Assembly (NCBI GenBank): GCA_025964355.1
Contig: JAOPZB010000080.1
Location: 1-37,273 of the forward strand
Reading direction: 5' to 3'
DNA: 37,273 nt
Origin: Solirubrobacterales bacterium
Lineage (GTDB): Bacteria; Actinomycetota; Thermoleophilia; Solirubrobacterales; Solirubrobacteraceae
The stretch's first letter is position 1. Each line of letters begins with the position of its first letter. A program made the translations under genes and the position numbers. The notes under the pieces are model-generated. The model saw only the letters and a program-made list of their open reading frames with translations, made no database searches and was not told where the DNA came from. Positions 18,412 to 37,273 of this stretch are shown one piece after another.

Positions 18412-19230
18412 TCAATCCATCGTCAGAGGCCCCTCGGCCGCCCCGCTGAGGAACTGGCGCACGAACGCGTTCTCGGAGGAGAACATCCTCTCCGCGTCGC
18501 CCGCTTCCACGATCCGCCCCCGCCAAAGAAGCGCGATGTACTCGCCGATCTGCCGCGCCGACGCGATGTTGTGCGTCACGACTATGTAGGCACCCCTGTG
18601 GATCGTGTGCATCTCCTGGATCAGATCGCACAGCAGCGCCGTGCGCACCGGGTCCAATCCCGAGTCGGGCTCGTCGAAGATCACGATGTCCGGTTCCATG
18701 ACGAGGGCGCGCGCGAAGCCGGCTCGCTTGCGCATGCCGCCCGAGAGCTGGGAGGGCGAGTCGCCCATCGCATCCGCCAGGCCTACGTCGGCGAGGCGCT
18801 GAGAGACGCGCTCGGCGATCTGGGTCTCCGGGAGATCGGTGTGCTGGCGCAGCGGGAAGGCGACGTTGTCGAACACGGACATCGAGCCGAACAGGGCCCC
18901 GTCCTGGAACAGCACGCCGATCTTGCGGCGAAGCGCGAGCAGCCGTGGCATCGTCAGGCTCGGGACCGACTGCCCCTGCACGATGATGTCACCGGAGTCC
19001 GGGAACATCAGGCCGATTATGTGCTTGATCAGCACGCTCTTGCCGGTGCCGGAGGGCCCCAGCACGACGGTGATCGTGTCGTCGGGGAACGCGACGTTCA
19101 ACCCGTTGAGCACCGGCACGCCGCCGAGGCGCTTGTGCACGTCGATGCAGCGGATCGACCACTCGCCCGCGTCGGGGTCTCCGGAGAGCTCGAGGTCGCT
19201 GGTGTGATACTCGAAGTCGTCGGCCATCAT
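18412..19230 (-). CDS. MCE-associated ABC transporter ATP-binding protein (MlaF/Mkl-like)
   Basis: Walker A GPSGTGKSVLIKHIIGL, QLSGGMRKRAGFARALVMEPDIVIFDEPDSGLDPVRT, typical of MlaF/Mkl; overlaps the last MCE gene by 4 bp. Confidence 0.93.
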   Translation of the reverse strand: MMADDFEYHTSDLELSGDPDAGEWSIRCIDVHKRLGGVPVLNGLNVAFPDDTITVVLGPSGTGKSVLIKHIIGLMFPDSGDIIVQGQSVPSLTMPRLLALRRKIGVLFQDGALFGSMSVFDNVAFPLRQHTDLPETQIAERVSQRLADVGLADAMGDSPSQLSGGMRKRAGFARALVMEPDIVIFDEPDSGLDPVRTALLCDLIQEMHTIHRGAYIVVTHNIASARQIGEYIALLWRGRIVEAGDAERMFSSENAFVRQFLSGAAEGPLTMD

Positions 19231-20729
19231 TTCCCTTCAAAGGTTACGTGAGGGAACTGGCTCGTCTGGCCGTTGAACGTGAACGGCCCCTGCTGCAGGC
19301 AGACCGGCGCCGGGACTTCGTTGGCGTGTTCGGGCGTGTTGGCGACCTTGAACTGGATGATCTGTTCGATGATGCTCTGGGAGATCGTTTCGTTCGGCGG
19401 GCCGCTCACCGAGGGCGCGGAGTTCGAGCAGGAGCCGCTGCTGAAGACAGGCAGGCCGCTGGCGAGCGAGTGCAGCGCTCCGGTATGGAAATAGGGGTTG
19501 GAGCGGTCGGTTCCGATCCGGCTCGGGTAGAGCGCGAGGCTCTCCGGGCTGAGCACGTTCATCGACGTCAGCAGGTGCGCGGCCGGGCCGCTCGGGTCGC
19601 TGCCGTTCTTGCCGTGTGACTCGGATGCCGCCGTGAGGTTCGCGAAGAAGGCCTGAACCTCGGGTACGTATTCGCCCGTGTACTGCAGGAACGGGTCGAG
19701 GTTGTGCAGAACCGGCCTGAGGTTTTCGAGCACCGGCACGGTCAGGTCGAGCGTCTTCTTGACGTCGGGGAGCCCGGCCTTCGCGGCCTTGGTGAGCGGG
19801 CCGAGGTCCGTCAGGAACTTGTCGAATTCGGGAGCGAACGGCTTTGCGGCCGTGAGCAGCAGCGCCAGCTGGCGCTCGGCCGGCTTGAATTCGTCGAGGA
19901 ACGGGCTGGCGTCCGCGGCGAAGGCGTCGAGTTCCTTGAGCGCCACCGTCGAGTTGTGCTCGAACGTGGGCAGCGCCTTGAACGCTTCGGCGAAGCCCTG
20001 ACTGCCTTCGGCGGCCGCGTGGAAGGTGTGTTCTCCGTTGACGATCAGGCCTTCGAGCTGATGGTCGCGGCTTGCGAGGGCGTTGAAGACGACGCCCGTG
20101 TTGCGCACGAGCGCGCGCACCGCCCCTTCCTGGGAGTTGAGGATCGTGACGAGACGGTTGGCATGTTCGACGAACGGTTCGAGCTTGGCGCAGGAGGCGT
20201 TGATCTGTTCTCCGCGCCCATTGATCCCTTCGGAGAGCGCCTGCTGCCAGATCGCGAACGCACGCCGGGTCTTGGGGTCGAAGGCCGACAGGATGTCGTC
20301 GAGGGTCACCGACGGTTCGACCTGGGCATTCGCGAGCTGTCCCTGGTCCGCCAGGTAGGGACCGGTGCTCCCCTCCGGGTTCAGCTGCACGAAGGTCTCT
20401 CCCAGGAGCGTCTTCTGGCGGAGGATCGCGTGCATGTTGGCCCGTATCGGGGCGTATTTACCTGACAGTTCGACCGTGGCGTGGGTGCGGCCGTCCTTGC
20501 CGAGCTTCAGCGCGACGACGTGGCCGACGTTCACGCCGCTGATGCGCACGTCGGACTGTTCGGCGAGGGCGAGCGTGCGCGGGAAGGCGACGGTGAAGCG
20601 GTAGCCCTTGGGCTTCAACGGCAGCGGACCGCCGAAGGACTCCCACAGGAACATCAGCAGCCCGAAGCAGCTGAGCACGAACAGGATGATCACGAGGATG
20701 TTGCCGAGGGTGGGCGCGCGCTTCTGCAT
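19227..20729 (-). CDS. MCE/MlaD family protein
   Basis: N-terminal TM then YRFTVAFPRTLALAEQSDVRISGVNVGHVVALKL (MCE domain) and helical region ILSAFDPKTRRAFAIW. Start set at MQKRAPTLGN (20729). Confidence 0.92.
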   Translation of the reverse strand: MQKRAPTLGNILVIILFVLSCFGLLMFLWESFGGPLPLKPKGYRFTVAFPRTLALAEQSDVRISGVNVGHVVALKLGKDGRTHATVELSGKYAPIRANMHAILRQKTLLGETFVQLNPEGSTGPYLADQGQLANAQVEPSVTLDDILSAFDPKTRRAFAIWQQALSEGINGRGEQINASCAKLEPFVEHANRLVTILNSQEGAVRALVRNTGVVFNALASRDHQLEGLIVNGEHTFHAAAEGSQGFAEAFKALPTFEHNSTVALKELDAFAADASPFLDEFKPAERQLALLLTAAKPFAPEFDKFLTDLGPLTKAAKAGLPDVKKTLDLTVPVLENLRPVLHNLDPFLQYTGEYVPEVQAFFANLTAASESHGKNGSDPSGPAAHLLTSMNVLSPESLALYPSRIGTDRSNPYFHTGALHSLASGLPVFSSGSCSNSAPSVSGPPNETISQSIIEQIIQFKVANTPEHANEVPAPVCLQQGPFTFNGQTSQFPHVTFEGK

Positions 20730-20730
20730 G

Positions 20731-22230
20731 TCAGCCCTTCCCTGCGCTCGAGCTCTTCGCGGTTGGCGAGGCCGCTCCGAACACGCTCGGGTTGAGGCTC
20801 GAGAGCGCTGCGCCCGCACTGGCCTTGGGGGCGGCCGAGCTCGTTTTCGCTTTGACCACCGAGCCGGGCAGGAGACGTTCGCATTCAGCCTGTGTGGGCG
20901 GCTTGAGCAGGTTGACGAGCAGGTTCACAGTGGGGTTGACTTCCGATACGCCGACGAGCAGCGGCAGGATGTTGCAGTTGAAGTAGACGAGGCTGCGCCC
21001 GACGGCGCCGTGGGCGTCAGACGTGCTGACGACGCTGTTGAGGTTGTGGTTGCCCCAGTCGAGGAAGAACAGGAAGCCGCCCTTGCTGGGCCCGGGGTTG
21101 TAGGCCAGCTCGTTGAAGAATTCGTTGAGCACCGAGAAGCTCACCGCGAGCTTCGGGAAGGCTTCGCCGGCGCCTTTGGTGGAGGGTGCGAGTTCGTTGA
21201 CGACAGGGAGGATCTGTCGCGCGAACGGGCGGATTTCGTTCTTGATTATCGGCGTCGTCTTGTTGGCGAGCCGCCGCGTCGCTTCGTTGGCGGGGCCGAG
21301 CGCGCTCGCGAACGGCTGCAGCTTTCGCAGCGCCGGGCCGAGCACGCGGCTGGCCGTGCCGAGCTTGCCGAGGCCAGTCCCCGCCTTTTTCAGGGCGCCG
21401 GGGAGCAGGCGCAGCGTCTGCTGGACGTTTGCATCCTCCTTCGCGAAGGTCGCGAACACGGCGTTGGAGGCCTCGACGAGTTCGGCGAGCTGCTTGTCCT
21501 TGCCGCCCAGCGATTCCATCAGCAGCCTGAAGTTGTGGATCGAGCGGGCGACGTTGGCGTGACGGATTTCGACCTGCTCGGCGATCTTCTGGAACTCCTT
21601 GGCCGTCGGATCGAAGCGCTTGAGCGTCGCGGACAGCGCGGCCGCGTTGCCTTTCAGGCCCTGGCCGGCGCCGGCGAGCAGCTCCTGCAGGTAGGCGCGG
21701 GTTTCGGCGTCGAGACCCGCTAGGAACTCGTCGAAGTTGATGTTGGGCGCCGTCTGCGAAAGGGGGAGCACGTGACCGCTGGGCAGCTTCCCCGCGGAGG
21801 GCGTGCCGGGGTTGACCTCGATCGTGATGTCCTGCAGCTGCGTCTTCGGCCGCAGCAGCAGCGTCGCGTTGCGGTAGATGCGCGCGTATTTGGGAACGAC
21901 TTTCATCGTCACCGTGGCGACGCCGTTCTGCAGGTTGACGCTCGCGATTTCCCCGATCTTCGCGCCGGCGATCGTCACCGCCTGACCCTGCCCGGGGGTG
22001 ACGGCCTGTGCGGTCTGGAAGTCGGCCTTGAGCGTGTAGTAGCTGCGTCCGAAGACCGGCACCCAGCCCGGGAGCTTGAGGTTCTCGTGCGCGAGGATGT
22101 AGCCACCGACGGCTGCGGCGAGGATCACCATCGTGACGACGGCTATGAACGCCGTGCGGTAGCGCTCGATCTGGTCGCGGACGCTCAGCCCGCCTTCGTG
22201 TCCCGGTGCCGGCACTCTCGGCGCCATCAT
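20731..22230 (-). CDS. MCE/MlaD family protein
   Basis: TM segment, YYTLKADFQTAQAVTPGQGQAVTIAGAKIGEIASVNL, FLAGLDAETRAYLQELL. Start MMAPRVPAPGHEGG at 22230. Confidence 0.92.
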   Translation of the reverse strand: MMAPRVPAPGHEGGLSVRDQIERYRTAFIAVVTMVILAAAVGGYILAHENLKLPGWVPVFGRSYYTLKADFQTAQAVTPGQGQAVTIAGAKIGEIASVNLQNGVATVTMKVVPKYARIYRNATLLLRPKTQLQDITIEVNPGTPSAGKLPSGHVLPLSQTAPNINFDEFLAGLDAETRAYLQELLAGAGQGLKGNAAALSATLKRFDPTAKEFQKIAEQVEIRHANVARSIHNFRLLMESLGGKDKQLAELVEASNAVFATFAKEDANVQQTLRLLPGALKKAGTGLGKLGTASRVLGPALRKLQPFASALGPANEATRRLANKTTPIIKNEIRPFARQILPVVNELAPSTKGAGEAFPKLAVSFSVLNEFFNELAYNPGPSKGGFLFFLDWGNHNLNSVVSTSDAHGAVGRSLVYFNCNILPLLVGVSEVNPTVNLLVNLLKPPTQAECERLLPGSVVKAKTSSAAPKASAGAALSSLNPSVFGAASPTAKSSSAGKG

Positions 22231-23726
22231 CCGTTCCCGTCCGCCGGGCCCTGCGACAGCGGGCCGTTGAAGTTGGGCAGCGCCTGCTTGTAGCACGGCG
22301 CGAGCGGCTGGTAGGGCGGCTCCTGCGCCGGGTAGGCCGGGCGCGTCCCCTGCGGCGACAGCGGGGAGCGGGCGAGCAGCTGCAGCCCTTCGCTCTTGCT
22401 GCCGAGCTCTTTGACCTTCTGGGAGCGGAGCGTCTGGCCGCTGTTGCCGACCATGAACTTGGCCATCACACCGTTGCCGTCGAAGTGCTGACCGATGCTC
22501 CCGAGGCCGACGAGGCTGTACCAGAATTCCTTGTAGTTTTCGACGCCGGAGGTGCTCGCGCCGTCCTGGATCTTGGTGTTCCCGGCGGGATAGATCACTT
22601 TCGTCAGGCATTTGTTGAACAGCTCGGTCTGCTTGAACAGCGGGACCTGTTCGGCCTCCAGGCTCGCCAGTGACGGCGTCGCGGCCGACAGCCCTTTGGC
22701 CACCCCGCCGAGCTCGGTCGGCGTAAGCGATGCCTGCACCTGTGCGATCCACGGCAGCGCCGCGGCGACGGTGGGGTTCGTCGCCCTGACGCCCGGGAGG
22801 ATGTCGCGTGCGAACGTCCGCGTCGGTGGGAACGAGGCGTTCAGAGCGGCGAGGCCGCGGTCGATGCTCAGCAGCGAGCTCGGGAGCTCCGCGACCGTCG
22901 CGCGCAGCGGCGCGGACTGCGCGGCGAACTCGGAGAAGAACGTGTTGAAGTTGCCGATCAGTTCGCCGAGCTGCTGCTCGTGGACGTTCAGCCCGGCGGT
23001 GACTTTGCCTATGCCGGCGACCAGTTTGGAGAGGTCGTGCGGTTCGGTGCCGCCGATCGCCTGGTTGAGCACCGCGGTGCCGCGCAGCGAGGGCGGACCG
23101 CGATGGTAGGCCTTGGCGAGCGCCTGGGCGGCGTTCAGGCCGCGCACGTCGGGATCCTGTTCGGCGTTTTCGGCGGCGTTCGGCTTGCGGGTCAGCGCGT
23201 CGCCGTATTCGATGAGGAAGGTCTGCAGGTTCGAGCGCGTGTCGGTGTTCAGGGCGTCGAGCACCTGGTCGAGCTGCACGGGATCGGATGTCTGGGTGAT
23301 CGGAATCGTGGCACCCGAGGAGAGCGTGTTCGCGGACGGGCTCCCGGGCTGCAGTTCGACGAACCAGTTGCCTTCGAGGAAGATCCGCGGACGGATCTTG
23401 AGCGTCGCATCCGAGTGGATCGGCAGGCCCTTCGATTCGATTTCCATCGTCACCAGGCCGGCCTTCCCCGAGCGCGTCACCGAGCTGACCTTGCCGACGT
23501 CGACACCGGCCACGCGCACCGGCGACTTCGGGTGGATGTTGACCGCGGTCGCGAACTGCGCCTTCAGGCGGTAGCCGTGTTTGAACGGGATGTGCTTGGT
23601 GAAGCCGAAGTAGACGAGGATCGCGGCGACGACGATGACGATGATCCCGAAGCGCAGCGGGTTGTAGCGCTGCAGCTCGATGACCGGGATTTCGTCGTGG
23701 CGACGCCACCAGCGCCTGCGGCTCAT
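22227..23726 (-). CDS. MCE/MlaD family protein
   Basis: YRLKAQFATAVNIHPKSPVRVAGVDVGKVSSVTRSGKAGLVTMEIESKGLPIHSDATLKIRPRIFLEGNWFVELQPG. Confidence 0.94.
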   Translation of the reverse strand: MSRRRWWRRHDEIPVIELQRYNPLRFGIIVIVVAAILVYFGFTKHIPFKHGYRLKAQFATAVNIHPKSPVRVAGVDVGKVSSVTRSGKAGLVTMEIESKGLPIHSDATLKIRPRIFLEGNWFVELQPGSPSANTLSSGATIPITQTSDPVQLDQVLDALNTDTRSNLQTFLIEYGDALTRKPNAAENAEQDPDVRGLNAAQALAKAYHRGPPSLRGTAVLNQAIGGTEPHDLSKLVAGIGKVTAGLNVHEQQLGELIGNFNTFFSEFAAQSAPLRATVAELPSSLLSIDRGLAALNASFPPTRTFARDILPGVRATNPTVAAALPWIAQVQASLTPTELGGVAKGLSAATPSLASLEAEQVPLFKQTELFNKCLTKVIYPAGNTKIQDGASTSGVENYKEFWYSLVGLGSIGQHFDGNGVMAKFMVGNSGQTLRSQKVKELGSKSEGLQLLARSPLSPQGTRPAYPAQEPPYQPLAPCYKQALPNFNGPLSQGPADGNG

Positions 23727-25237
23727 TTCTTCTTCCCCTTGGCGATCCCGAGCGCCGTGAGGGTCGCGCTCGGGTACGGTTCGCCGGACAGGTCCTGTCC
23801 GCGGGTGGTGAGTTCGCGCTTGTTGGCGACGTCGATCGAGGGCACGTTCCCGATCACGGCTTTGCCTTCCAGATACGTCTCGTTGCCGGCTTCGCAGACC
23901 TGCGGCTGACCGGGCCCGGCGACGTTCGGATACGGGTTCACGTGCACATGGTTGTTGTCGATGATCGTCGTGGATTGGAAGCCGTGTTCGGTCGAGGGGC
24001 CGTTCGCCGGAGCAGACGACGGATAGCCCTCGTTGTTCGGCCCCGGCGGGGAGAGCACGAAGCCCGAGCGGGCGACGGTCCCGACGCCGACGTTCTCGGA
24101 CTCGAGGCTCGCGACGTTGCGGAAAGCCAGCGTCAGGTAGTTGCAGACGGCCTGCTCGGGTGCGATGCCGGCGAACAGGGGATTGCCGACCTGCAGCGTC
24201 CGCGTGAGGTCTTCGAGGCCGAGCGAGGCGACCGGGTTCTGCGCGAAGGCGGCGAGCGCCTGCGATGAGGCGGCGAGCTGCGTGTTCAGTTCCGTCGCCG
24301 CCTTGAGGTTCACGGCGCCCACGGCGAAGGCGTGGGCGAGCGGCGGAGCGACGGTCCGCAGCGACCGCGCGCTCGGGCGCAGCAGGTGCATGAATTCCGT
24401 CGCCTTTTCGATGAACGGCGCCTCGAACGGCAGCGAGTGGATGGCCTGTTCGAGCGCGGCGGGACCACCCTCGGTCGCTTTTTCAAGCGATGGCGCGACG
24501 CTCGCCCAGGCCTTGAAGAACGTGTCCTGGTCGCTGAAGAAGGAGGCCTGCGCGTTGGCCACCGGGGCGGCCTGCGAGGCGACGCGGTCCAGGGCGATGA
24601 AGAAGCCGCGCAGGTCGGTCTGCGGAAGCGCGAGGTTGTGAAGGACCGGCACGGCGTTGTTCACGAGCGGCCGCAGTTCGGCGATCGTGTTGTTCAGCCC
24701 GAGCCCGCGGCCGGCCAGCCCGTCGCCGAAGTTGTTCGTGTTGATCTTGATGGCGGTTCGCGTCGGCTTGTCGAACATGTTGAAGAGTTCGTCGATGTTC
24801 ACCGGTTCGCGCGTCTGCGCTGTGGGCAACGTCTGCCCCGCCTTCAGCGGCTGATGCGAGCTCCCCTTTTCAAGTTCCAGGTACTTCAGGCCGATCGCCG
24901 AGACGGACAGCACGATCGCTTTCGTGTCGGCGGGGAGCGGTTCGATGCCCTTTTCGAGCTTCAGCGTGGCGATCGCGCTGACGCGTCCGGTGGCGCGGTT
25001 CTGGCGCGGCGTGAGCGAGCTGACCAGCCCGACCCGGGTGCCCGCGATGCGCACCTGGTTTGAGGGGATCAGGCCGGACGCCTCGGGCAGTTCGACTTTG
25101 ATGTTGTAGGTCGGCACGAACGGCAGGCCGTTGTTGGCGTTGTAGGCCAGGAACACGGCCACGACGACGATCAGCGTCGTCACCGCCCCGATCAGGAGCG
25201 GGTTGCCGGCGAGGGAGCCGCTGCGACGCCGTTTCAT
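23723..25237 (-). CDS. MCE/MlaD family protein
   Basis: YNIKVELPEASGLIPSNQVRIAGTRVGLVSSLTPR... and VNIDELFNMFDKPTRTAI. Confidence 0.94.
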   Translation of the reverse strand: MKRRRSGSLAGNPLLIGAVTTLIVVVAVFLAYNANNGLPFVPTYNIKVELPEASGLIPSNQVRIAGTRVGLVSSLTPRQNRATGRVSAIATLKLEKGIEPLPADTKAIVLSVSAIGLKYLELEKGSSHQPLKAGQTLPTAQTREPVNIDELFNMFDKPTRTAIKINTNNFGDGLAGRGLGLNNTIAELRPLVNNAVPVLHNLALPQTDLRGFFIALDRVASQAAPVANAQASFFSDQDTFFKAWASVAPSLEKATEGGPAALEQAIHSLPFEAPFIEKATEFMHLLRPSARSLRTVAPPLAHAFAVGAVNLKAATELNTQLAASSQALAAFAQNPVASLGLEDLTRTLQVGNPLFAGIAPEQAVCNYLTLAFRNVASLESENVGVGTVARSGFVLSPPGPNNEGYPSSAPANGPSTEHGFQSTTIIDNNHVHVNPYPNVAGPGQPQVCEAGNETYLEGKAVIGNVPSIDVANKRELTTRGQDLSGEPYPSATLTALGIAKGKKK

Positions 25238-26664
25238 CAGGGCGTCTCCAGCGGGTCGCAGGTAAGCAGGCCGTTGTCGACGAACGGCGAGGAGCCGTCG
25301 GCGGCCGGCTGCGTCGCGCCTCCGGGGCAGCGGCGCAGCTGTCCGGATTTGAGGTTTTCGAGGGCGGCCTGCGGCGTCGTCGGCGCGAGGTTGTTGTTCG
25401 CGCCGAGCTTGAAGTCGGGCAGCACCGGCGTCAGGCGCGCGTAGTGGCCGTTGGCGTCGTAGTAGGCGCCGGCCTGGCCGAACGTGCGCAGCGTCCCGGA
25501 CAGGTCGGGGGCGTAGGGACCGAAGAAGGCGGTGATCGGGACCGATTCCTGCAGTGCCGTGACGCTGCTCGGCGAGCTCGTCGTCAGCGTCCGCGCGAGC
25601 ACCGGCAGCGCCCGGATCAGGTCGGTGAGGTCGTTGTTGGCGCCGGGGCGGTTGAACGCTTCGCTGAAGTTGTGCACGGCGGGTGTCGCGGTTGTCACGA
25701 GCGGGCGCAGGCGTTCGAGCAGGGTGGTCAGCGACTTGGTGGTGGGCCGTGAGGTGTCGACGAGCTTTTTGAGCGCGCTGAACGTCGACGGCAGTTCGGC
25801 GAAGGTGCGGTTGCCCTGGCGCAGCGTGACCGGCAGCTGTTTGAATCCCTGCGCGAGCTGGGTCTGCTGGGAGCCGATCGCCTGGAAGGTCGTGTTCGCG
25901 TTTTCGATCAGGTCGGTGAGCTGTTCGCTGCGGGCGCCGATCGTAGTGACCGCCTTGGCGCTTTCCACCAGGAAGCTCGTGAACACGGGCTGATCGCGGA
26001 CGAGCTCGGAGAAGAACTGATCGCTCGCGTTCAGCGCCGGCGGGAAGTATTCGGTCGACAGCCCGAGGTCGCGCCCGGCTCCGGCGTACTGTTCGGCCGA
26101 CCCCTGCAGGAACTGGGCGAGCCCCTTGCGCGTCTTGGGGTTGAGCGTGTTGAAGAGCTGGTCGAGGTCGACGACTTCACGCGTCGCGCTGGACGGCAGC
26201 GTCGCGCCGGCCGGCAGCGCGCGGTTGTTGTTGGGCCCGGGCGACAGCGCGATGTAGCGGTTGGCGACGCTGGACAGCGACGGCACCCTGACCTGCGCGA
26301 CCGTGCCTTCGTGCAGCGGTGTCAGCGAGGAGTCGACGTGGATCGTGATCCGTGCCCTGAAGTCCTTGGTCAGGACGATGTTCGTGATGCTCCCGACCGG
26401 TACCCCTCCCACCTGCACCTGATCTCCGCGCACGAGCTGCCCGGCTTCCTTGAACACGAGCTGGTAGTTGGAGCCGCCGCTACCGCCGAGCACGAGGAAG
26501 AGGATGACCAGCACCACCGCGGCCAGCGCGGCCACCGCGAGGACGCCGCCCAGGCTGGTGCGCGATGCGCGCGGGCGCCCGGGGGGACCCGTCGGGCTCG
26601 GCGGAGGAGACGGGGTCGCCGGAGGGCTGGGCGGGCTAGCCGTTGCCACCGGAGTGCCTTTCAC
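25237..26664 (-). CDS. MCE/MlaD family protein
   Basis: Pro-rich cytoplasmic tail, TM, YQLVFKEAGQLVRGDQVQVGGVPVGSITNIVLTKDFRARITIHVDSSLTPLHEGTVAQVR. Confidence 0.94.
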   Translation of the reverse strand: MKGTPVATASPPSPPATPSPPPSPTGPPGRPRASRTSLGGVLAVAALAAVVLVILFLVLGGSGGSNYQLVFKEAGQLVRGDQVQVGGVPVGSITNIVLTKDFRARITIHVDSSLTPLHEGTVAQVRVPSLSSVANRYIALSPGPNNNRALPAGATLPSSATREVVDLDQLFNTLNPKTRKGLAQFLQGSAEQYAGAGRDLGLSTEYFPPALNASDQFFSELVRDQPVFTSFLVESAKAVTTIGARSEQLTDLIENANTTFQAIGSQQTQLAQGFKQLPVTLRQGNRTFAELPSTFSALKKLVDTSRPTTKSLTTLLERLRPLVTTATPAVHNFSEAFNRPGANNDLTDLIRALPVLARTLTTSSPSSVTALQESVPITAFFGPYAPDLSGTLRTFGQAGAYYDANGHYARLTPVLPDFKLGANNNLAPTTPQAALENLKSGQLRRCPGGATQPAADGSSPFVDNGLLTCDPLETP

Positions 26665-28915
26665 TCGTCGCGCCGCCAGGCGCCGCGGCCACGCGGATGG
26701 CGGCCGGGGAGGGACCGCGTGCCACGGTCGGATCGGGAATCTCGCCGAGGCGGGCGATCAGCTTTATCCACTCGCTCGGCGTGAGCACGGACGCGGGCGA
26801 GCCGGCGGCGTGCGCGCCGGTCGCGCCCGTGGAGAAGGTGACGCGGACGGCATTGCGCGCCTGCGCGCTCGTGACCGCGCCAACCGCGCGTCCGTAGCTC
26901 ATCTGGCTGACGATGCGCGCTGGCCTGGCGGCGCCCTGCAGCATCAGCAGCTTGCGCACGGCGCTGTCGACGATCGAGCCCTGGCTCTGGTGGCCGGCGA
27001 CCGCGACGCCGTTGATCGCGGTTATGTCAACGGCCTGACCGCTCGACTTCGCGGCGGCGTTCGTCGCGACACCGGCCGGCGTCGAGCCGGGGCACGCCAG
27101 GGCGGACACGGTCGGCTTCATGCCCGACACCGAGAGGTACTCGAGCATCGCCAGCACGCGCTTGTCGACACTGCCGGACTGCACCGCCTCGCGCCCGCAG
27201 CGGGCCAGGCGGATGCCGGCGTCGTGGAGCACCTGGGGCTCGAGCTGCTGCTTTGACTCGAGCAGCACCTGACCGGTCGTCGGCGACGTGGCCAGGAAGG
27301 GGTTCTCCCCTTTCGCCCTGAAGACCGAGGTGTTCTCGAGCGCGACCCAACCGTCGAGAATCGGCTTCGGGTCGATCGCCGGAGCGCCGGCGCCCGCAGG
27401 GCGGATCTGAAAGAGAACGTGCGGTTCGCCCGCCGCGGAAACGGAGCCGGAGCCGGCGCCGGCAGTCGGGCCGACGTGCCCGAGGACGGTCCCGGCGATC
27501 ACGTGAACACCCGCATGGAGACCGTGCAGATAGACGTCGTTCGGGCCTTCCGTGAAGACCCGCACGCCGCCCGACGTGACGCGACCCGCGGCTGGGGGAG
27601 CGGCAGCGAGCGGCCGGCTCAGAGCGGGCGGGGGCGGTTCGAGCGCGGCCGCGGCGCCGAGCGCGAGCGCCGACACGGTCGACGCCTGGGTGAGCGGCGA
27701 GCGAGGCTGCGCGCCGGCGGTCGCCGGACCACTCGGCGGCGGTTCGTTCCCGGCGCCGGCCTGGCCGAGACGATCGCTGACCGCGCTGTGGACGTGCGGC
27801 TTGAGAACCGGATAGACCTTTGAGACATCGCCGAGCTCTGCGTAGAGGTAGGTGTTGCCGAACGCGTCTCGCAGCGAGATGTAGCGTCCGAGGGTCGGGG
27901 AGTTGCCGATCTGGACGACTTCGCCGTCCTGCACCGCGATCACCGGGGCTCCGGGCTGCGTGTAGATCGTCGTCCCGGCGAGCGTTCGCGGAGTGCTCGA
28001 GCCCTTGGCGGCGACCGCCGGGAACCCGTCGCTGAAGTGGGCCGCCGAGTGGACCGGGAAGCGCGCCTCGGTGAGCCCGGTTATGGCGCCGAGGAGTTCC
28101 GCCGGCGTGCCGCCGAGCAGTTGGGCGCGGAGCATGACGGAGTCCACGTAGGCCTGGGAGTGGTTGTAGGAGAAGACGGCCGAGCGGATGGCGGTGGCGC
28201 CGCCGGCCGCGCGCAGGTAGCGCGCCGCCGCGAAGATCGCGTCGGCCGGGTTGTAGGGATCCTCGAAGCCGTCGCCGTTGGCATCGACCCCGTACTGCGC
28301 CCACTCGGCCGGCAGGAACTGCATCCAGCCCTCGGCGTTGGCGCTGGAGACGCTCAGGTCGCGCCCGTAGTCCGTCTCCACCTCGTTGATCGCGGCGAGC
28401 ACCTGCCAGGGGATTCCGTAGGCCGTGCCGGCGGCCTGGAAGATCGGCAGCAGGAACGGGGGGATGCGGAAGCTTTCGATGAAGAAGGCGGGCACGCCCG
28501 CGATCGAGGACTGCAGCGACAGCGGCAGCGACGGGGTGAGCGCCGAGGGCGACGGTGGCTTGGCGCCGTTTGCCGCTGCGGTTGAGCCTTCCCCTTCGCC
28601 CGCGGCGTTCGGCGACGCGGCCTTCTGCGGCTTCGCGCCGGCCCTTCCGCCGAGCGTGCTGCCCTGCGAGCGTTGCGCCTGCACCTGCGGCGCCGTCGTC
28701 GCTTGCGACGGTGCCGGAGATGGCGGGACGGTCACCTGGGTCGTGGAGGTGGAGGTCGCGGGAGCCTCGGGGGCGGGCGCTGCCGCGGTCGTTTCGGTCC
28801 CGTGCACAGGCGGAGCGGCGGCTTCGGCGGCGAGGCTCGCGGCCGGCAGGATCAGGGCGAGGCCGGCGACGGCCGCGAGGAGGAGGCGAGGTGGCAGGGG
28901 TCGTCGGTATCGCAT
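26636..28915 (-). CDS. Lytic transglycosylase (SLT/MltB-like) with C-terminal degenerate M23/LytM-like region
   Basis: Signal peptide; IPWQVLAAINEVETDYGRDLSVSSANAEGWMQFLPAEWAQYGVDANGDGFEDPYNPADAIFAAARYL; later GAPVIAVQDGEVVQIGNSPTLGRYISLRDAFGNTYLYAEL and HVIAGTVLGHVGPTAG...EPHVLFQI. Confidence 0.85.
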   Translation of the reverse strand: MRYRRPLPPRLLLAAVAGLALILPAASLAAEAAAPPVHGTETTAAAPAPEAPATSTSTTQVTVPPSPAPSQATTAPQVQAQRSQGSTLGGRAGAKPQKAASPNAAGEGEGSTAAANGAKPPSPSALTPSLPLSLQSSIAGVPAFFIESFRIPPFLLPIFQAAGTAYGIPWQVLAAINEVETDYGRDLSVSSANAEGWMQFLPAEWAQYGVDANGDGFEDPYNPADAIFAAARYLRAAGGATAIRSAVFSYNHSQAYVDSVMLRAQLLGGTPAELLGAITGLTEARFPVHSAAHFSDGFPAVAAKGSSTPRTLAGTTIYTQPGAPVIAVQDGEVVQIGNSPTLGRYISLRDAFGNTYLYAELGDVSKVYPVLKPHVHSAVSDRLGQAGAGNEPPPSGPATAGAQPRSPLTQASTVSALALGAAAALEPPPPALSRPLAAAPPAAGRVTSGGVRVFTEGPNDVYLHGLHAGVHVIAGTVLGHVGPTAGAGSGSVSAAGEPHVLFQIRPAGAGAPAIDPKPILDGWVALENTSVFRAKGENPFLATSPTTGQVLLESKQQLEPQVLHDAGIRLARCGREAVQSGSVDKRVLAMLEYLSVSGMKPTVSALACPGSTPAGVATNAAAKSSGQAVDITAINGVAVAGHQSQGSIVDSAVRKLLMLQGAARPARIVSQMSYGRAVGAVTSAQARNAVRVTFSTGATGAHAAGSPASVLTPSEWIKLIARLGEIPDPTVARGPSPAAIRVAAAPGGATSERHSGGNG

Positions 28916-28918
28916 GGC

Positions 28919-30499
28919 TCAGTTGCCGAGGAGGTAGTTGAGGAGCAGGCCGCCGGCGGCCGAGCCTTCGCCGTGTGGCGCGTAGTAGGTCGTGCCGGCC
29001 GTGGAGCCGCCGACCGGCTGTGCCGTGGCGCCCGAGCTGCTGGAGGGGGCCGCGCCGCCGATTTCGCTGGCCGTCGGGGCGGAGCCGGGGTATTTGGCGC
29101 GTGCCTGTGCGGGGGTGGCGCCCTGCAGGACCGCCAACGTCCGCGCCATCACGAGGCCGGTGCTCCGCGGATCGACCGATGCCGCCGAGGCGGCCGTGCC
29201 ATTGGAGGCCGAGGCGGCTTCGGCGACCCCGGTCGTGCTGAACAGTTTGCGGTTGCACTGCGAGGTCGGTTTGAGGCTGTATGTCAGGCACGCGGTCCCG
29301 ACCCCCTCGGCCCGCAGGAAATGACCGAGCGCGTCGTAGCCGTTGGAGGCGCCGGCGCCCAGGAAGATGAAGTCCATGATCCGCTCCAGGCCGCCCGTGT
29401 CGCGCAGGCTCGTGAGCAGCGACGAGAGGTTGCCGGTGAACGGCTGCGCTGCGTTGCCGAGCGCCTTCAGGCGGTTGAGCAGCGGCTTGGTGGCGACCAG
29501 CGCCGGGCCGGACAGCTTCGACGTCTTGCCGAGGTTCTGGAAGAACGTCGAGGAGCTGTTGGAGAAGCCGGGGATGTTGGTGAACGCCTTGCTGATCGCG
29601 GGAGCCGCGGCGCCGAGATCGGTGAAGGCGGGCGTCGTCTGGTCGGCGAAGCGTCCGAGGCGTTCCATCGCCGGCCCGAGCTGTCTCAGGAACGGCGGGA
29701 AGAGCTGGAGATTGCGTGCGAGCGCCCCGCGATGCGCGGCGCTTGCCTGGGCGACCTTGTTGCTCTGCACGATGAAGTCGGCGACCTTTTCGCGAACCGC
29801 GGCGAACGGCGCCAGCGCCTGGTCGGAGTCGACGGCGAGTTTCGCGAGCACATGGTTCTCGCTGGCGAGGATGTGGAGCACCTTGTCGAGTTCCTGCAGG
29901 GCCGGGTTGGCGCGGCGGATGACGGCGCTGAGGTCGCTGCCGCGGCCGGCGAGGCCGGCTCCGAGTTCGTTGAGGATGATCGTCAGGCGCTGGCGTTCGG
30001 GCAGGCGGCTGATGTCGCCGAGCAGGTCGACGTCCACGGGGCTGTGCGTCTGCTGCACGGGCAGCAGCCACTGGCCTTCCCCTTCTCGGCCGTGGCCGAT
30101 TTTCTGCAGGGAGGGCGGAAGCGGTGTGCCTTCGACGCGCGGCTGGGTGGGCAGGCAGTCGACGTACTTCTCCCCGATCAGCGCCTGCGGCCGCACGGTG
30201 CAGCTGGCGTCCGAGCGAAAGTCCTGGAAGCCGGGCTTGGTGATGTTCAGGGCGACGGCGGCCTTCGCGGCGGGCGTCGCTGTCACCGACCCGACCGTGC
30301 CGACCTTCACGCCGGCGATCTTGACGTCCTCCCCCGAGATGATGTTGCCGGCGTCGTCGAAGATCGCGCGCACCGTGTAGGTGCCGTTCGAGCCGCCCGC
30401 CGAGGTGGCGAGCGCGACGATGACGGCGAGTGCGACCGTGCACGCGGCACCGGCGATCCCGGCCGCGAATCTCCTCCGCCCGACGCTCTCCTTCCTCAC
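28919..30499 (-). CDS. MCE/MlaD family protein (first gene of the operon)
   Basis: GTG start with GGAAGGA upstream; YTVRAIFDDAGNIISGEDVKIAGVKVGTVGSVTATPAAKAAVALNITKPGFQDFRSDASCTVRPQALIGEKYVDC. Confidence 0.94.
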   Translation of the reverse strand: MRKESVGRRRFAAGIAGAACTVALAVIVALATSAGGSNGTYTVRAIFDDAGNIISGEDVKIAGVKVGTVGSVTATPAAKAAVALNITKPGFQDFRSDASCTVRPQALIGEKYVDCLPTQPRVEGTPLPPSLQKIGHGREGEGQWLLPVQQTHSPVDVDLLGDISRLPERQRLTIILNELGAGLAGRGSDLSAVIRRANPALQELDKVLHILASENHVLAKLAVDSDQALAPFAAVREKVADFIVQSNKVAQASAAHRGALARNLQLFPPFLRQLGPAMERLGRFADQTTPAFTDLGAAAPAISKAFTNIPGFSNSSSTFFQNLGKTSKLSGPALVATKPLLNRLKALGNAAQPFTGNLSSLLTSLRDTGGLERIMDFIFLGAGASNGYDALGHFLRAEGVGTACLTYSLKPTSQCNRKLFSTTGVAEAASASNGTAASAASVDPRSTGLVMARTLAVLQGATPAQARAKYPGSAPTASEIGGAAPSSSSGATAQPVGGSTAGTTYYAPHGEGSAAGGLLLNYLLGN

Positions 30500-31691: not shown

Positions 31692-32810
31692 TTATGGCTG
31701 AGGCGCCGACAGCTCCAACTCCGTGCCCGCGTAGCGCACGCCCACGGGCTCGAGTATCACCTCTCTGGGCCCCTCCTCCACCCGACCGGCGACGAGCGCG
31801 CTCAGGCCCAGCTGCTCTGCGATTGCGACGACGCCCGCGCCGGCGCCGGGCGCCGTGTAGATGGCGAAGCCCGACCCCATGTTGAAGGTCGAATAGGCCG
31901 ACTGGGCGTCGAGGCCTGCCTCGGCTGCGAGGAAGCTCAGGACCGGCGGCACCTCCGGCAGACGCTCGACGCGATAGGTCAGCGGCCGCGGCGGGCGCAT
32001 GAGCTTGAGCAGTCCATGGCCGGTGATGTGGCTCATGTAGCTGACGGGCATATCGGCCTCCAGCAGAGCTGCGACGAGAGCGACGTACATGGTCGATGGC
32101 TCGAGCAGTGCCTCGCCGAGCGTGCCGGCGCCGGGCACCGCCGTCGCATAGCCGTCGGGCAGCCGTCCGGCGACCAGCCTCGCGAGCGACGCGCCGTTGG
32201 CGTGCAGTCCACTGGACGAGACGAGCACGATCTCGTCCCCGGGGGCGAGACCCTCCCCGAGGATCGGCGAACGACCCTCCGGGACGGCTCCGACAGCTGC
32301 TCCCGCGAGCTCGATGTCGCGCTCGTCGAGCAGACCCGGCAGCGACGGCGACTCTCCTCCGCCCCACACGCAGCCGGCGTCCGCGCACGCCCGGCGCCAG
32401 CCCTCCAGCAGCGAGGCCGCGCGTTCGCGCTGCAGGTACCACTCCGAGGCGCCGGTCGCGAAGTAGGCGTTCACCACCAGCGGGAGCGCGCCGACGCAGC
32501 AGAGATCGTTCAGGATCGCAGCGACGGTGTCGTACGCGACGTCGCCGAAGCGGTCGATGCCCTGGGTCTCGAGCACGTGGCGGGCGACGACGGACTTCGT
32601 GCCGAGTCCCTCCACGACGAACGCCAGCGTCTGGCCGCCGAACTCGAACACGAACGCCGGCTCCCCGCGAGAGGCGTCGAGCGCACGGCCGCCGCGCGCG
32701 GCGAGCAGCGGGGATGTCGACAGTGCCTTGGCGATCGCCAGGCGCTTTCCCGAGTCGAGCGCGTCGTAGTCCACACCGGCCGCGCGATAGCTGGCGCCTC
32801 TGTCGCTCAT
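31692..32810 (-). CDS. PurM-like AIR synthase-related protein
   Basis: SYRAAGVDYDALDSGKRLAIAKA, FVVEGLGTKSVVARHVL, AILNDLCCVGALPLVVNAYFA, GGESPSLPGLL, SHITGHGLLKLMRP. Start at 32810, preceded by TAGGAT. Confidence 0.82.
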   Translation of the reverse strand: MSDRGASYRAAGVDYDALDSGKRLAIAKALSTSPLLAARGGRALDASRGEPAFVFEFGGQTLAFVVEGLGTKSVVARHVLETQGIDRFGDVAYDTVAAILNDLCCVGALPLVVNAYFATGASEWYLQRERAASLLEGWRRACADAGCVWGGGESPSLPGLLDERDIELAGAAVGAVPEGRSPILGEGLAPGDEIVLVSSSGLHANGASLARLVAGRLPDGYATAVPGAGTLGEALLEPSTMYVALVAALLEADMPVSYMSHITGHGLLKLMRPPRPLTYRVERLPEVPPVLSFLAAEAGLDAQSAYSTFNMGSGFAIYTAPGAGAGVVAIAEQLGLSALVAGRVEEGPREVILEPVGVRYAGTELELSAPQP

Positions 32811-32852
32811 CGTGGATGATCCTAGGCCCATTGCCGTCAGCGAGGAGAACCG

Positions 32853-34079
32853 ATGGACTTCCAGCCGAGCGAGCGCTGTTCCGAATTCAAAGAGCGCCTC
32901 ACGTCGTTCATGGACGAGCACGTCTACCCGGCCGAGGCGATCTACGAGCAGCAGCTGCTCGCATCGGGCGACCCTCATCATCAGCCGGCGGTGATGGAGG
33001 AGCTCAAGCAGCAGGCGCGCGACGCCGGGCTGTGGAACATGTTCCTTCCCGACCCCGACCACGGCGCGGGACTGTCCAACAGCGACTACGCGCCGCTCGC
33101 CGAGATCCTCGGGCGATCGCACATCGCATCCGAGGCATGCAACTGCTCTGCGCCGGACACCGGCAACATGGAGGTGCTCAACCAGTTCGCGACGCCCGAG
33201 CAGAAGGAGCGATGGCTCATGCCGCTGCTCGACGGCGAGATCCGCTCCGCGTTCGCGATGACCGAGCCGGACGTCGCGAGCTCAGACGCGACGAACATCG
33301 CCATGCGCATCGAGCGCGACGGCGAGGACTATGTCCTCAACGGACGCAAGTGGTGGACGTCCAACGCACTGCACCCCAACTGCCGGATCATGATCGTGAT
33401 GGGCAAGACGGCTGGGTGGGAGTCCAGTCCCGCGCCGGTCCACAAGCAGCAGAGCATGATCCTCGTGCCACTCGACACGCCCGGCGTGAGCATCCTCCGC
33501 GGCCTCCCGGTGTTCGGATATCAGGACCAGGAGGGCCACGCCGAAGTCGACTTCGCAGACGTGCGCGTCCCGGCCTCCAACCTGATCGCCGGGGAGGGCG
33601 ACGGCTTCATGATCGCCCAGGCGCGGCTGGGCCCGGGGCGCATCCATCACTGCATGCGCGCGCTCGGCGCCGCGGAGCGAGCGCTGGAAGCGATGTGCCG
33701 CCGTGCGGTCAGCCGCGTGACGTTCGGTCAGCCGATCGCCATGCGCGGCAACATCCAGGACTGGATCGCCGAGTCGCGCATCGAGATCGAGATGGCCCGC
33801 CTGCTGACGCTCAAGGCCGCCTGGATGATGGACACGGTCGGCAACCGCCAGGCGCGCACGGAGATCGCTGCGATAAAGGTGGCCGCGCCGAATGTCGCGC
33901 TCAAGGTCGTCGACCGCGCCATTCAGGTACACGGCGGCGGCGGTGTCTCCGACGACTTCACGCTCGCGTGGGCGTACGCGCACCTGCGCACCCTGCGCCT
34001 CGCCGACGGCCCCGATGAGGTCCACAAGCTGTCCATCGCCCGCCGCGAGCTGGCCCCCTACATACCCCGGGAGGCATGA
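32853..34079 (+). CDS. Acyl-CoA dehydrogenase family protein
   Basis: [126 protein letters not shown]. Confidence 0.95.
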
Positions 34080-34233: not shown

Positions 34234-37200
34234 ATGACGCAGCGTCGCCTGATCGCCGTGCAAAAAGCGCTCGTGGGCGCGCTGCTCGCTTGCGCGCTGT
34301 CCGCGCTCGCGGCGTCCTCTGCGTTCGGCTGGGCCCCGCCTGCGAAATGGGAAGCGGGCACCTGCAACGGCACCCAGCTCACGGTCAAAAATTGCGAATA
34401 CACGAGCCCGCCGAGCGTGTTCTACACCCAGGCCGCAGGGCACCCGTCCTGGGGGCTGACCGCCTTCGAAGTCGCCCACACCGGCTCGGGGGAAAGCCGC
34501 AGACCCGATGAAACGCTCAAACGAATCCGGGTCGACGTCCCCCCCGGCCTGGCCGCGGACCCGCAGGCACTGCCCACCTGCAGCCGCGCGGAATTCACTG
34601 CAAACGCCTGCAGTCCGCTCACGAAAGCCGGGTTCGTCGAACTCGAAGCGTTCGTCGGCGCGCCGGTCGAAAAAGTCCTGAAACTCGAAGGGAACGTCTA
34701 CAACCTCGAACAGGAGCCGGGCCTGCCGCTGCTGTTCGGGATCGAAGTCAAAGGCGTCCCACCGCTCGTCGAAAACACGCAGCTGCTGCTCGAAGGGCAC
34801 GTGAGCTACGCCAGGGAACCGGCGCTGGAAGCGCGCGGTGTCCCCTCCGGCGACTTCCACGAGTGGTTCCAGATCGACAATATTCCGCCGGAAGTCACTG
34901 TGAAACTCGGCCCCCTGCCGATTGAACTCGCCAAAGCGAAACTGCAGACCCTCAAGTCGAAGCTGTTCTTCGACGGCCACGCCGGCCACGGCAACTTCCT
35001 GACGCTGCCCAGCGAATGCGGCCCGCCGAGCAAGTCGACCTCCTACATCGAACTCGAAGACGAAAAACACGAGGTCGTAAGCGCGCCCACCGTGCCGCCC
35101 GTCGGAGTCGACGGCTGCAAAAACGTCCCCTTCAACCCGACCGCACAGGTCAAACCGCAGACCTCCGGCTACGACCAGCCGGATGGCGCGATCACCGACG
35201 TGCTGGTCCCCCAGAACGAAGGCGAAAACGAAATCAATACGGCTGACATCGTCTCGGGCCACGCGCTGTTCCCCGAAGGCCTGACGCTCAACCCCTCCGC
35301 CGCGCACGGCCTCGAAGCGTGCTCGCCCGCGCTCGTCCACTTCGAAAGCAAAGAAGCCGCGCAGTGCCCTGCGGGCTCGCGGATCGGCAGCGTCAACATC
35401 GAAACGGACCTGCCGAAAGGGTCGCTCACCGGCGGTGTCTACCTCGCCGCGCCGAACGGCACACCGATCACCGGTCCGCCGTACGCGACCTACATCGTGG
35501 CCGAAAGCGTCTACGACGTGAAGGTCAAGGTCGAAGCGACCGTCACGCCCGACCCCACCACGGGGCGCCTGAAAGTCGACGTCGTGAACAGCGCCGCGCA
35601 CCCCTTCAACCTGCCGCAGCTGCCGTTCAGCCGCGCCACTCTGACGCTCAACGGAGGGCCGCGCGCACCGCTCGCGAACCCACTCAGCTGCGTCGTGGGC
35701 AACACCGAATCTGACTTCATCGCCTACTCGGGCGAAGGCATCCTCAAAGAGTTCCAGCCGGCGTTCCCGTTCGCGGCCACCGACTGCCCCGCCGCGATCC
35801 CGTTCTCGCTCAGCCAGTCGACGAGCCAGACCAGCAACACCGCCGGCGCCTTCACGAGCTTCACCTTCAACCTCGGCCGCGCCGACGGCCAGCAGAACCT
35901 CGCCAGCGTGCAGACGACGCTGCCCGCCGGCCTGGTCGGCCTGATCCCGTCGGTGCCGCTGTGCCCCGAACCTGGAGCGAACGTCGGCACCTGCCCGGCC
36001 AGCAGCCAGATCGGCACGGCATCCGCGACCGCCGGCGTCGGCGGTGAACCGTTCGGCTTCTCCGGTCCGGTGTACCTGACAGGACCGACCAACGGCGCAC
36101 CCTACGGCCTCTCGATCCCGATCGAGGCGGCGGCGGGGCCGTTCGACCTCGGGCGCGTCGAGACGCGTGTGGCGGTCGGCGTCGACCCGCATAGCGCTCG
36201 CGTGATAGCGACTGCGACCCTGCCGCGGATTGTGGGCGGGGTGCCCCTGCACCTGCGCGGCATCAGCGTCGCGGTCAACCGCCCGAGCTTCCTGTTGAAC
36301 CCCACGTTCTGCGGCCAGCTGGCCACGGACTCGAAGCTGACCTCCACCTTCAACGCCTCGCAGATCGCCTCAAGCCAGTTCGGCGTGACGAACTGCGGGG
36401 CGCTGGCCTTCAAGCCCTCGTTCAAGGTCGCGAGCAGCACCAAGACCTCCAAAGCGAATGGTGCCCCCCTGAAGGTCAACCTCACGCAGGGTGCCCACCA
36501 GGCGAACATCCGCTCGGTCTTCACGCAGCTGCCACTCCAGCTCCCGTCGCGCCTGACGACCCTCCAGAAAGCATGTCCGCAGGCCACCTTCGAAGCCAAC
36601 CCGGCGAGTTGTCCGGCGACCTCCGTGGTGGGCAGCGCGACGGCCGTGACGCCGGTGCTCCCGGGCAGCGTCACCGGTCCCGCCTACCTCGTCTCCCACG
36701 CTGCCGAGGCGTTCCCCAACCTCGTCCTCGTGCTGCAGGACGGCGGCGTGCGCGTGATCCTGGAAGGCACGACGGACATCAAAAAGGGCATCACCACCTC
36801 GACGTTCGCCTCGGTCCCCGACGTCCCGGTGTCGAGCTTCTCGCTCTCGCTGCCGACAGGACCGCACTCGGCGCTGGCCGCCTACGGCAACCTCTGCGCG
36901 CACAGCCTGATAATGCCCACGGTCATCACAGCGCAGAGCGGAGCGCAGTTCAAGCAGAGCACGAAGATCGCCGTGGCCGGGTGTGGCATCAGGATCGTGC
37001 GCCGCAAGCTCGTCGGCCACACGCTGCGGATCACCGTCCAGACGCCAGCCGCCGGGCGGATCACCGTCACCGGCAGGAACCTGAAGACCGCCAAGCGAAG
37101 CGTCCGCAAGGCGACCACGACCACGTTGCGGGTTCGCCTCGGACGAGCCGCGGTGAGCGCGCTGAAAGCACATCGCCGCCTGAAGATCAAGGTGCGCGTC

Positions 37201-37269
37201 AAGTTCGCTCCCCGCCAGAAGGGTGAAGCCCGCTCGACAGCCTCCACCACGGTCAGCGTCAAACGCTGA
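34234..37269 (+). CDS. Large secreted cysteine-module repeat protein, unknown function
   Basis: 1011 aa; signal-like N-terminus (ALVGALLACALSALAASSAFG); about four alternating A and B cysteine modules; basic C-terminus rich in K/R and T. Confidence 0.85.
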   Translation: MTQRRLIAVQKALVGALLACALSALAASSAFGWAPPAKWEAGTCNGTQLTVKNCEYTSPPSVFYTQAAGHPSWGLTAFEVAHTGSGESRRPDETLKRIRVDVPPGLAADPQALPTCSRAEFTANACSPLTKAGFVELEAFVGAPVEKVLKLEGNVYNLEQEPGLPLLFGIEVKGVPPLVENTQLLLEGHVSYAREPALEARGVPSGDFHEWFQIDNIPPEVTVKLGPLPIELAKAKLQTLKSKLFFDGHAGHGNFLTLPSECGPPSKSTSYIELEDEKHEVVSAPTVPPVGVDGCKNVPFNPTAQVKPQTSGYDQPDGAITDVLVPQNEGENEINTADIVSGHALFPEGLTLNPSAAHGLEACSPALVHFESKEAAQCPAGSRIGSVNIETDLPKGSLTGGVYLAAPNGTPITGPPYATYIVAESVYDVKVKVEATVTPDPTTGRLKVDVVNSAAHPFNLPQLPFSRATLTLNGGPRAPLANPLSCVVGNTESDFIAYSGEGILKEFQPAFPFAATDCPAAIPFSLSQSTSQTSNTAGAFTSFTFNLGRADGQQNLASVQTTLPAGLVGLIPSVPLCPEPGANVGTCPASSQIGTASATAGVGGEPFGFSGPVYLTGPTNGAPYGLSIPIEAAAGPFDLGRVETRVAVGVDPHSARVIATATLPRIVGGVPLHLRGISVAVNRPSFLLNPTFCGQLATDSKLTSTFNASQIASSQFGVTNCGALAFKPSFKVASSTKTSKANGAPLKVNLTQGAHQANIRSVFTQLPLQLPSRLTTLQKACPQATFEANPASCPATSVVGSATAVTPVLPGSVTGPAYLVSHAAEAFPNLVLVLQDGGVRVILEGTTDIKKGITTSTFASVPDVPVSSFSLSLPTGPHSALAAYGNLCAHSLIMPTVITAQSGAQFKQSTKIAVAGCGIRIVRRKLVGHTLRITVQTPAAGRITVTGRNLKTAKRSVRKATTTTLRVRLGRAAVSALKAHRRLKIKVRVKFAPRQKGEARSTASTTVSVKR

Positions 37270-37273
37270 CGGC

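What the first reader, a model, noticed from the sequence alone, without database searches (positions are those of the whole stretch)
34234..37269. 1011-aa secreted protein is built from about four alternating cysteine modules (A-B)4, apparently an undescribed family
Seen directly in the translation. A modules share a pattern of roughly 'LPxGL...C.xA.F....CPxxSxIGxxxA...G..GxVYL': VDVPPGLAADPQALPTCSRAEFTANACSPLTKAGFVELEAFVG; FPEGLTLNPSAAHGLEACSPALVHFESKEAAQCPAGSRIGSVNIETDLPKGSLTGGVYLA; LPAGLVGLIPSVPLCPEPGANVGTCPASSQIGTASATAG...SGPVYLT; LPSRLTTLQKACPQATFEANPASCPATSVVGSATAVTPVLPGSVTGPAYLV. B modules share 'NPxxCg...~30-40 aa...C....F.P......TS': LPSECG...DGCKNVPFNPTAQVKPQTS; ANPLSCVVG...TDCPAAIPFSLSQSTSQTS; LNPTFCGQ...TNCGALAFKPSFKVASSTKTS; YGNLCAH...AGCGIRIVRRKLVGHT. 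Each module carries a Cys pair, which fits a disulfide-stabilised extracellular beta-rich rod. I recognise no named family. Function (surface fibre, adhesin, lipid shuttle next to an mce system) is speculation.
Basis: partly seen in the sequence, partly recalled or inferred. Interest (0 to 1): 0.78.

Follow-up and report, generated by a model that had tools for sequence, protein, structure and literature searches.

The report
Soil actinobacterial four-domain secreted rod family
The gene encodes a secreted, disulfide-rich protein made of four copies of a previously unnamed domain; it belongs to a surface-protein family limited to one order of soil bacteria, in which a sister branch is copied about 30 times in one genome alongside a propeller-shaped partner protein, which points to an unexplored way for these cells to meet their surroundings.

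Summary
The 1011-aa ORF at 34234-37269 (+) has a signal peptide, four homologous units of 165-220 aa and a basic tail. All six unit comparisons align (hhalign E 1e-11 to 1e-20; reversed controls >=0.046), and the 16 unit cysteines are conserved in 28-30 of 30 homologues. Units are position-specific; odd and even types alternate, and giant relatives (up to 7223 aa) extend this as P1-(P2-P3)n-P4. No Pfam, NCBIfam, PHROGs, PADLOC or PDB-sequence match exists. In samples of 299 class and 397 phylum genomes the family occurs only in the window's order (Solirubrobacterales).

The window copy is in the "solo" clade, in a synteny block with an mce operon whose first gene is a secreted single-unit relative.

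Best model: a wall-attached rod, basic C-terminus proximal, variable N-terminal unit outermost, used for capture or adhesion. Fold and ligand are unknown; AlphaFold was inconclusive.

The parts
34234..37269 (+). Complete gene of the 1011-aa four-unit secreted protein
   Evidence: homologues throughout genus
34234..34329 (+). Signal peptide (approximate end): MTQRRLIAVQKALVGALLACALSALAASSAFG
   Evidence: sequence; the only hydrophobic 19-residue windows (Kyte-Doolittle >1.6) start at residues 6-16, none elsewhere, so no second membrane anchor
34330..34497 (+). N-terminal segment with extra Cys pair C44/C54 (about two thirds of homologues)
34498..35169 (+). Unit 1 (odd type), Cys 116/126 and 262/295; most variable unit
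35230..35838 (+). Unit 2 (even type), Cys 363/378 and 486/518
35881..36447 (+). Unit 3 (odd type), Cys 577/587 and 693/721
36487..37008 (+). Unit 4 (even type), Cys 781/793 and 888/917; most conserved unit
36985..37266 (+). Basic C-terminal segment (net +26 in 94 aa against -16 for the mature body before it)
   Evidence: weak similarity to the C-terminus of the propeller partner, E 6.8e-9, 38% identity
30620..31390 (-). 256-aa secreted protein: single-unit relative with both Cys pairs, immediately upstream of and codirectional with the mce operon
   Evidence: hhalign to unit profile E 5e-8 over 143 columns, reversed control >=0.026; synteny
32853..34079 (+). Acyl-CoA dehydrogenase gene, conserved upstream neighbour
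   Evidence: Pfam; synteny
31692..32834 (-). AIR-synthase-like gene (start approximate), conserved in the block
18412..30499 (-). mce operon: ABC ATPase, several MlaD/Mce proteins, one SLT + M23 protein

Best explanation
A secreted, cell-wall-associated rod of four tandem two-disulfide domains (types X-Y-X-Y) with a variable N-terminal unit and a strongly basic C-terminal tail. Mechanism I think most likely: Sec export; folding with two disulfides per unit; retention on acidic wall polymers through the basic tail; units projecting outward so that unit 1 is distal and contacts ligand or surface. In the amplified branch the rod is made together with a secreted beta-propeller partner and, in about a third of the cassettes of one genome, a TetR-type regulator, giving a repertoire of regulated surface receptors or adhesins. 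The window copy belongs to the solo branch and probably serves the adjacent mce/oxidoreductase locus by capturing or presenting its hydrophobic substrate. Shown: repeats, cysteines, signal peptide, basic tail, variability gradient within the genus, operons, synteny. Inferred: wall attachment, rod shape, ligand binding, link to Mce substrate.
For: Repeat and Cys data. Hydrophobic signal only at the N-terminus. Tail basic in 114 of 117 members; 95% of unit proteins and 97% of partners in the cassette set carry net charge >=+8 in the last 60 aa, against 3% of neighbouring genes. Identity rises N to C among 29 paralogues of one genome: 0.37, 0.50, 0.60, 0.74 for units 1-4, and among window orthologues 0.52, 0.59, 0.65, 0.69. 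Partner gene directly upstream on the same strand in 17 pairs outside the genus (9 with 4-nt overlap) and 29 of 33 copies in G016; 20 of 34 pairs in that second set overlap by 4 nt; partner and rod distance matrices correlate r=0.77, null maximum 0.18. Partner domains PD40/NHL and Fn3-like. Regulator directly downstream in 11 of 29; the 4 tested carry TetR_N plus a winged-helix match. Window locus synteny in 7 species.
Against: No fold: AlphaFold pLDDT 50/60 and no significant Foldseek hit. No sortase motif or anchor, so the protein could be fully released. The N-to-C gradient is not monotonic outside the genus (0.29, 0.41, 0.40, 0.33). The window copy lacks the propeller partner. Linked genes can show correlated distances simply because they were copied together. 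Basic tails may be a general habit of secreted proteins in this order; the control used neighbouring genes, not secreted ones.
Confidence: 0.5

Rival explanations
1. Lipid carrier or bridge: each unit is a beta-rich hydrophobic-ligand domain; the single-unit protein and the four-unit rod hand lipid or sterol-like substrate across the wall to the Mce importer.
For: The single-unit relative is the first gene upstream of the mce operon; both lie in a block with acyl-CoA dehydrogenase, FMO-like and GMC oxidoreductases in 7 species. Mce genes also lie near a unit gene in another genus (L123).
Against: Most family copies have no mce neighbour; window orthologues in G022 and G016 lie outside the block; no hydrophobic-cavity fold could be shown.
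Confidence: 0.2
2. Structural coat: the rods and propellers form a cell-surface layer, matrix or pellicle rather than binding particular ligands.
For: Large gene dose (5.4% of G016), giant versions with 18 or more units in one family, basic tails.
Against: High divergence between paralogues (mean 50%, minimum 39% identity) and their own TetR-type regulators suggest diversified rather than uniform building blocks.
Confidence: 0.17
3. Polymorphic recognition system (kin or phage recognition), with unit 1 and the propeller as variable tips.
For: Variable N-terminal unit; copy number varies widely within one genus, from 2 matches to about 33 genes.
Against: No defence-family match and no toxin or immunity gene noticed beside the cassettes; copies are diverged paralogues, not shown to be hypervariable allelic sets.
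Confidence: 0.08

Closest known systems
SusC/SusD-type multi-copy surface pairs of Bacteroidetes (from general knowledge)
   Same: Two-gene surface pairs amplified many times per genome, often with a regulator, partners copied together
   Different: Order of Actinomycetota; no TonB-dependent transporter seen; partner is a beta-propeller; ligand unknown
Multi-domain disulfide- or isopeptide-stabilised surface rods of Gram-positive bacteria (from general knowledge)
   Same: Secreted tandem domains with a conserved proximal and variable distal end
   Different: No LPXTG or membrane anchor; unit has no sequence match to any Pfam model, Ig-like, Cna and DUF11 included
Mce-associated secreted proteins (from general knowledge)
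   Same: Encoded beside an mce operon; the single-unit relative heads it
   Different: No Mce or MlaD domain; the family is mostly not mce-linked
WP_093115827.1, a 993-aa Thermoleophilia 'conserved signature protein' of unknown function (PMC6544083, Table 2)
   Same: Similar length, class-restricted, uncharacterised
   Different: Identity with this family could not be tested here; it may or may not be a member

Membership tests
Any curated family (Pfam, NCBIfam, PHROGs, PADLOC) | Profile match to protein or unit | tested here: not met
   none for the whole protein; units only isolated chance-level hits (E>=0.02, one member each)
Solved structures | Sequence or fold match | tested here: not met
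   best 0.098; none at E<=0.001; models of low confidence, so the fold part is weak
Four-unit family defined here | Four position-specific units each with two conserved Cys pairs | tested here: met
Propeller-rod cassette | Beta-propeller gene directly upstream on the same strand | tested here: not met
   Window gene is preceded by an acyl-CoA dehydrogenase; met by the G000:C133 paralogue and 29 copies in G016
LPXTG-anchored adhesin | C-terminal LPXTG, hydrophobic stretch and basic tail | tested here: not met
   No motif in sequence; no hydrophobic window beyond the signal peptide
SusC/SusD system | TonB-dependent transporter partner | tested here: not met
   Partner is a PD40/NHL propeller protein
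Mce / MlaD protein | MlaD domain | tested here: not met
   none in the 1011-aa or 256-aa protein
Disulfide-stabilised domain | Both Cys pairs oxidised within each unit | tested here: inconclusive
   Conservation and joint loss of the second pair; the first pair is almost never lost; no structure

The most novel reading that the evidence does not exclude
A lineage-specific surface system in which tens of regulated propeller-rod cassettes act as the actinobacterial counterpart of Bacteroidetes SusCD repertoires, each recognising a different soil polymer or lipid, with the window's solo branch specialised as the receptor of an Mce lipid importer.
Probability: 0.2. Interest if true: 0.85.

Novelty: new variant of a known kind. 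Interest (0 to 1): 0.6.

Why it matters
Solirubrobacterales are mainly found in soil and poorly studied. One genus member devotes about 5% of its genome to an unnamed two-gene surface cassette, and the domain has no model in current libraries. Naming it would annotate many 'hypothetical' proteins and make concrete tests possible: what these cells bind, how they retain such rods on the wall, and whether the solo branch feeds Mce importers, whose extracellular partners remain an open question.

Tried and rejected
AlphaFold on unit 3 (12 rows) and unit 4 (13 rows), limited by the rule on admissible rows: pLDDT 50.5 and 60.2, Foldseek without significant hits. A two-unit alignment (A1) was unusable because MAFFT aligned overlapping parts. 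Viral contigs and plasmids: none. Literature: no description found. First neighbour clustering picked antisense ORFs in this GC-rich DNA and was redone with codon-position GC. The C-terminal module as a general sorting domain was rejected: only 2 proteins in the own genome carry it (the third match is the contig overlap) and 32 of 127 members. A general N-to-C conservation gradient was rejected outside the genus.

Full report
1. The protein. The window is the whole of contig C236 of a 2.78-Mb metagenome-assembled genome of 264 contigs. Its closest named relative is Solirubrobacterales MAG RYN_264 (about 90% protein identity). The last gene, 34234-37269 (+), is complete and encodes 1011 aa: a signal peptide, a short N-terminal segment, four units, and a basic C-terminal segment. 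Pfam and NCBIfam at E<=1, and PDB sequences, give nothing. Profiles of the unit against PDB, and 34 unit sequences against Pfam, give nothing credible; PHROGs and PADLOC give nothing at E<=0.01.

2. Repeats and cysteines. An alignment of 30 homologues keeps 15 unit cysteines in 30/30 and one in 28/30. The four units match each other by hhalign with E 1.9e-18 (1-2), 1.2e-20 (1-3), 9e-12 (1-4), 2.8e-18 (2-3), 1.6e-20 (2-4), 2.1e-11 (3-4); reversed controls are >=0.046. Of 351 ungapped units, 339 have all four Cys, 8 lack both of the second pair, 3 lack only the last, 1 lacks only the first, which supports pairing of the second two.

3. Order of units. Among the units of four-unit proteins (47-71 per position), the nearest relative of each unit in another locus, when it lies in another four-unit protein, is always the unit of the same position: 227 same, 0 different; the remainder fell in proteins with another count. 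The array was therefore fixed early. Units 1/3 and 2/4 are the closer pairs. In giant relatives the assignment alternates along 18-23 consecutive units, and an eight-unit protein reads P1-(P2-P3)x3-P4 exactly, so growth happens by copying an odd-even pair. One giant ORF spans 7223 aa; its fetched pieces, which meet at the cut, carry 23 and 9 units.

4. Range. Unit profile: 55 of 299 genomes of the class, all in the window's order (families f1-f4); 7 of 397 genomes of the phylum, again only in that order. These scans score a limited number of candidates per genome, so very divergent members could be missed. All 24 genus genomes searched, the own one included, have it.

5. Operon partner. In other genera and families a secreted protein of mostly 715-1342 aa is encoded directly upstream on the same strand in 17 pairs, 9 with a 4-nt overlap. 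Most of those tested carry PD40 and/or NHL propeller repeats, some with Fn3-like segments; 3 of the first 10 gave no Pfam match. Genome G016, of the window's genus, has 33 unit genes among the stretches read; 29 have the partner directly upstream, and one of the four apparent solos has a partner match just upstream by protein search (C25:92076). These pairs make up 177,924 nt, 5.4% of 3.3 Mb. In 11 of 29, a gene of about 320-370 aa follows at once on the same strand; the four tested have TetR_N plus a winged-helix match. Partner and rod evolve together (r 0.77 against null maximum 0.18). The own genome has one such pair on C133.

6. Where the window copy belongs. A tree of 65 proteins separates a solo clade (22 rows, SH-aLRT 99) from a paired clade (34 rows, 99), with a few rows outside both; the window protein is in the solo clade. 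Two contexts dominate there: the mce-linked block and a GGDEF/aconitase-linked context. In 7 species the block reads mce operon - single-unit secreted protein - AIR-synthase-like - acyl-CoA dehydrogenase - four-unit gene, continuing in several of them with beta-lactamase-like, FMO-like and GMC oxidoreductase genes. The continuation in this genome comes from contig C210, whose end overlaps the window end by exactly 127 nt, an assembly-graph neighbour rather than a proven join.

7. The single-unit relative. The 256-aa protein 30620-31390 (-) aligns to the unit profile over 143 columns, both Cys pairs included, E 5e-8. Its family is multiplied in the genus (25 of 41 genomes searched). It lies just upstream of, and in line with, the mce genes.

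8. Mechanism. Within the genus, identity rises from unit 1 to unit 4 in both paralogues and orthologues, and the tail is basic in 114 of 117 proteins, with neighbouring genes as a contrast. This fits a rod held at its C-terminus with unit 1 outermost. The gradient is not monotonic outside the genus. Wall binding, rod shape and ligand are inferences. AlphaFold models were mostly strands but of low confidence, with no significant PDB match.

9. Prior knowledge. No paper describing this family or cassette was found in the held library. A 993-aa class signature protein of unknown function, WP_093115827.1, is listed in PMC6544083; whether it is a member could not be tested. Comparisons with SusCD systems and Gram-positive surface rods rest on general knowledge and concern resemblance in arrangement, not membership.

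Noticed in passing
30620-31390 (-): Single-unit secreted relative heading the mce operon; itself a multi-copy family in the genus.
   Followed up: partly
26639-28915 (-): Protein with both SLT transglycosylase and M23 peptidase domains inside the mce operon, with homologues in 5 syntenic loci; unusual company for mce genes.
   Followed up: partly
L051/L098 (G030:C7 about 253700-275300), L099, L100: Giant secreted proteins of the family, ORFs of 4643-7223 aa with 18 or more units in alternation.
   Followed up: partly
L146, L154, L156, L169 and others: Regulator with an N-terminal TetR_N domain and a C-terminal winged-helix (MarR/IclR-like) match directly after the rod gene; an unusual two-HTH arrangement.
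   Followed up: partly
L037, L047, L049, L167, L173, L174: Second solo context: four-unit gene beside a GAF-GGDEF diguanylate cyclase gene, often with aconitase nearby.
   Followed up: partly
window end 37147-37273 and L036: Contig C210 overlaps the window end by exactly 127 nt, so it is probably the next contig.
   Followed up: yes
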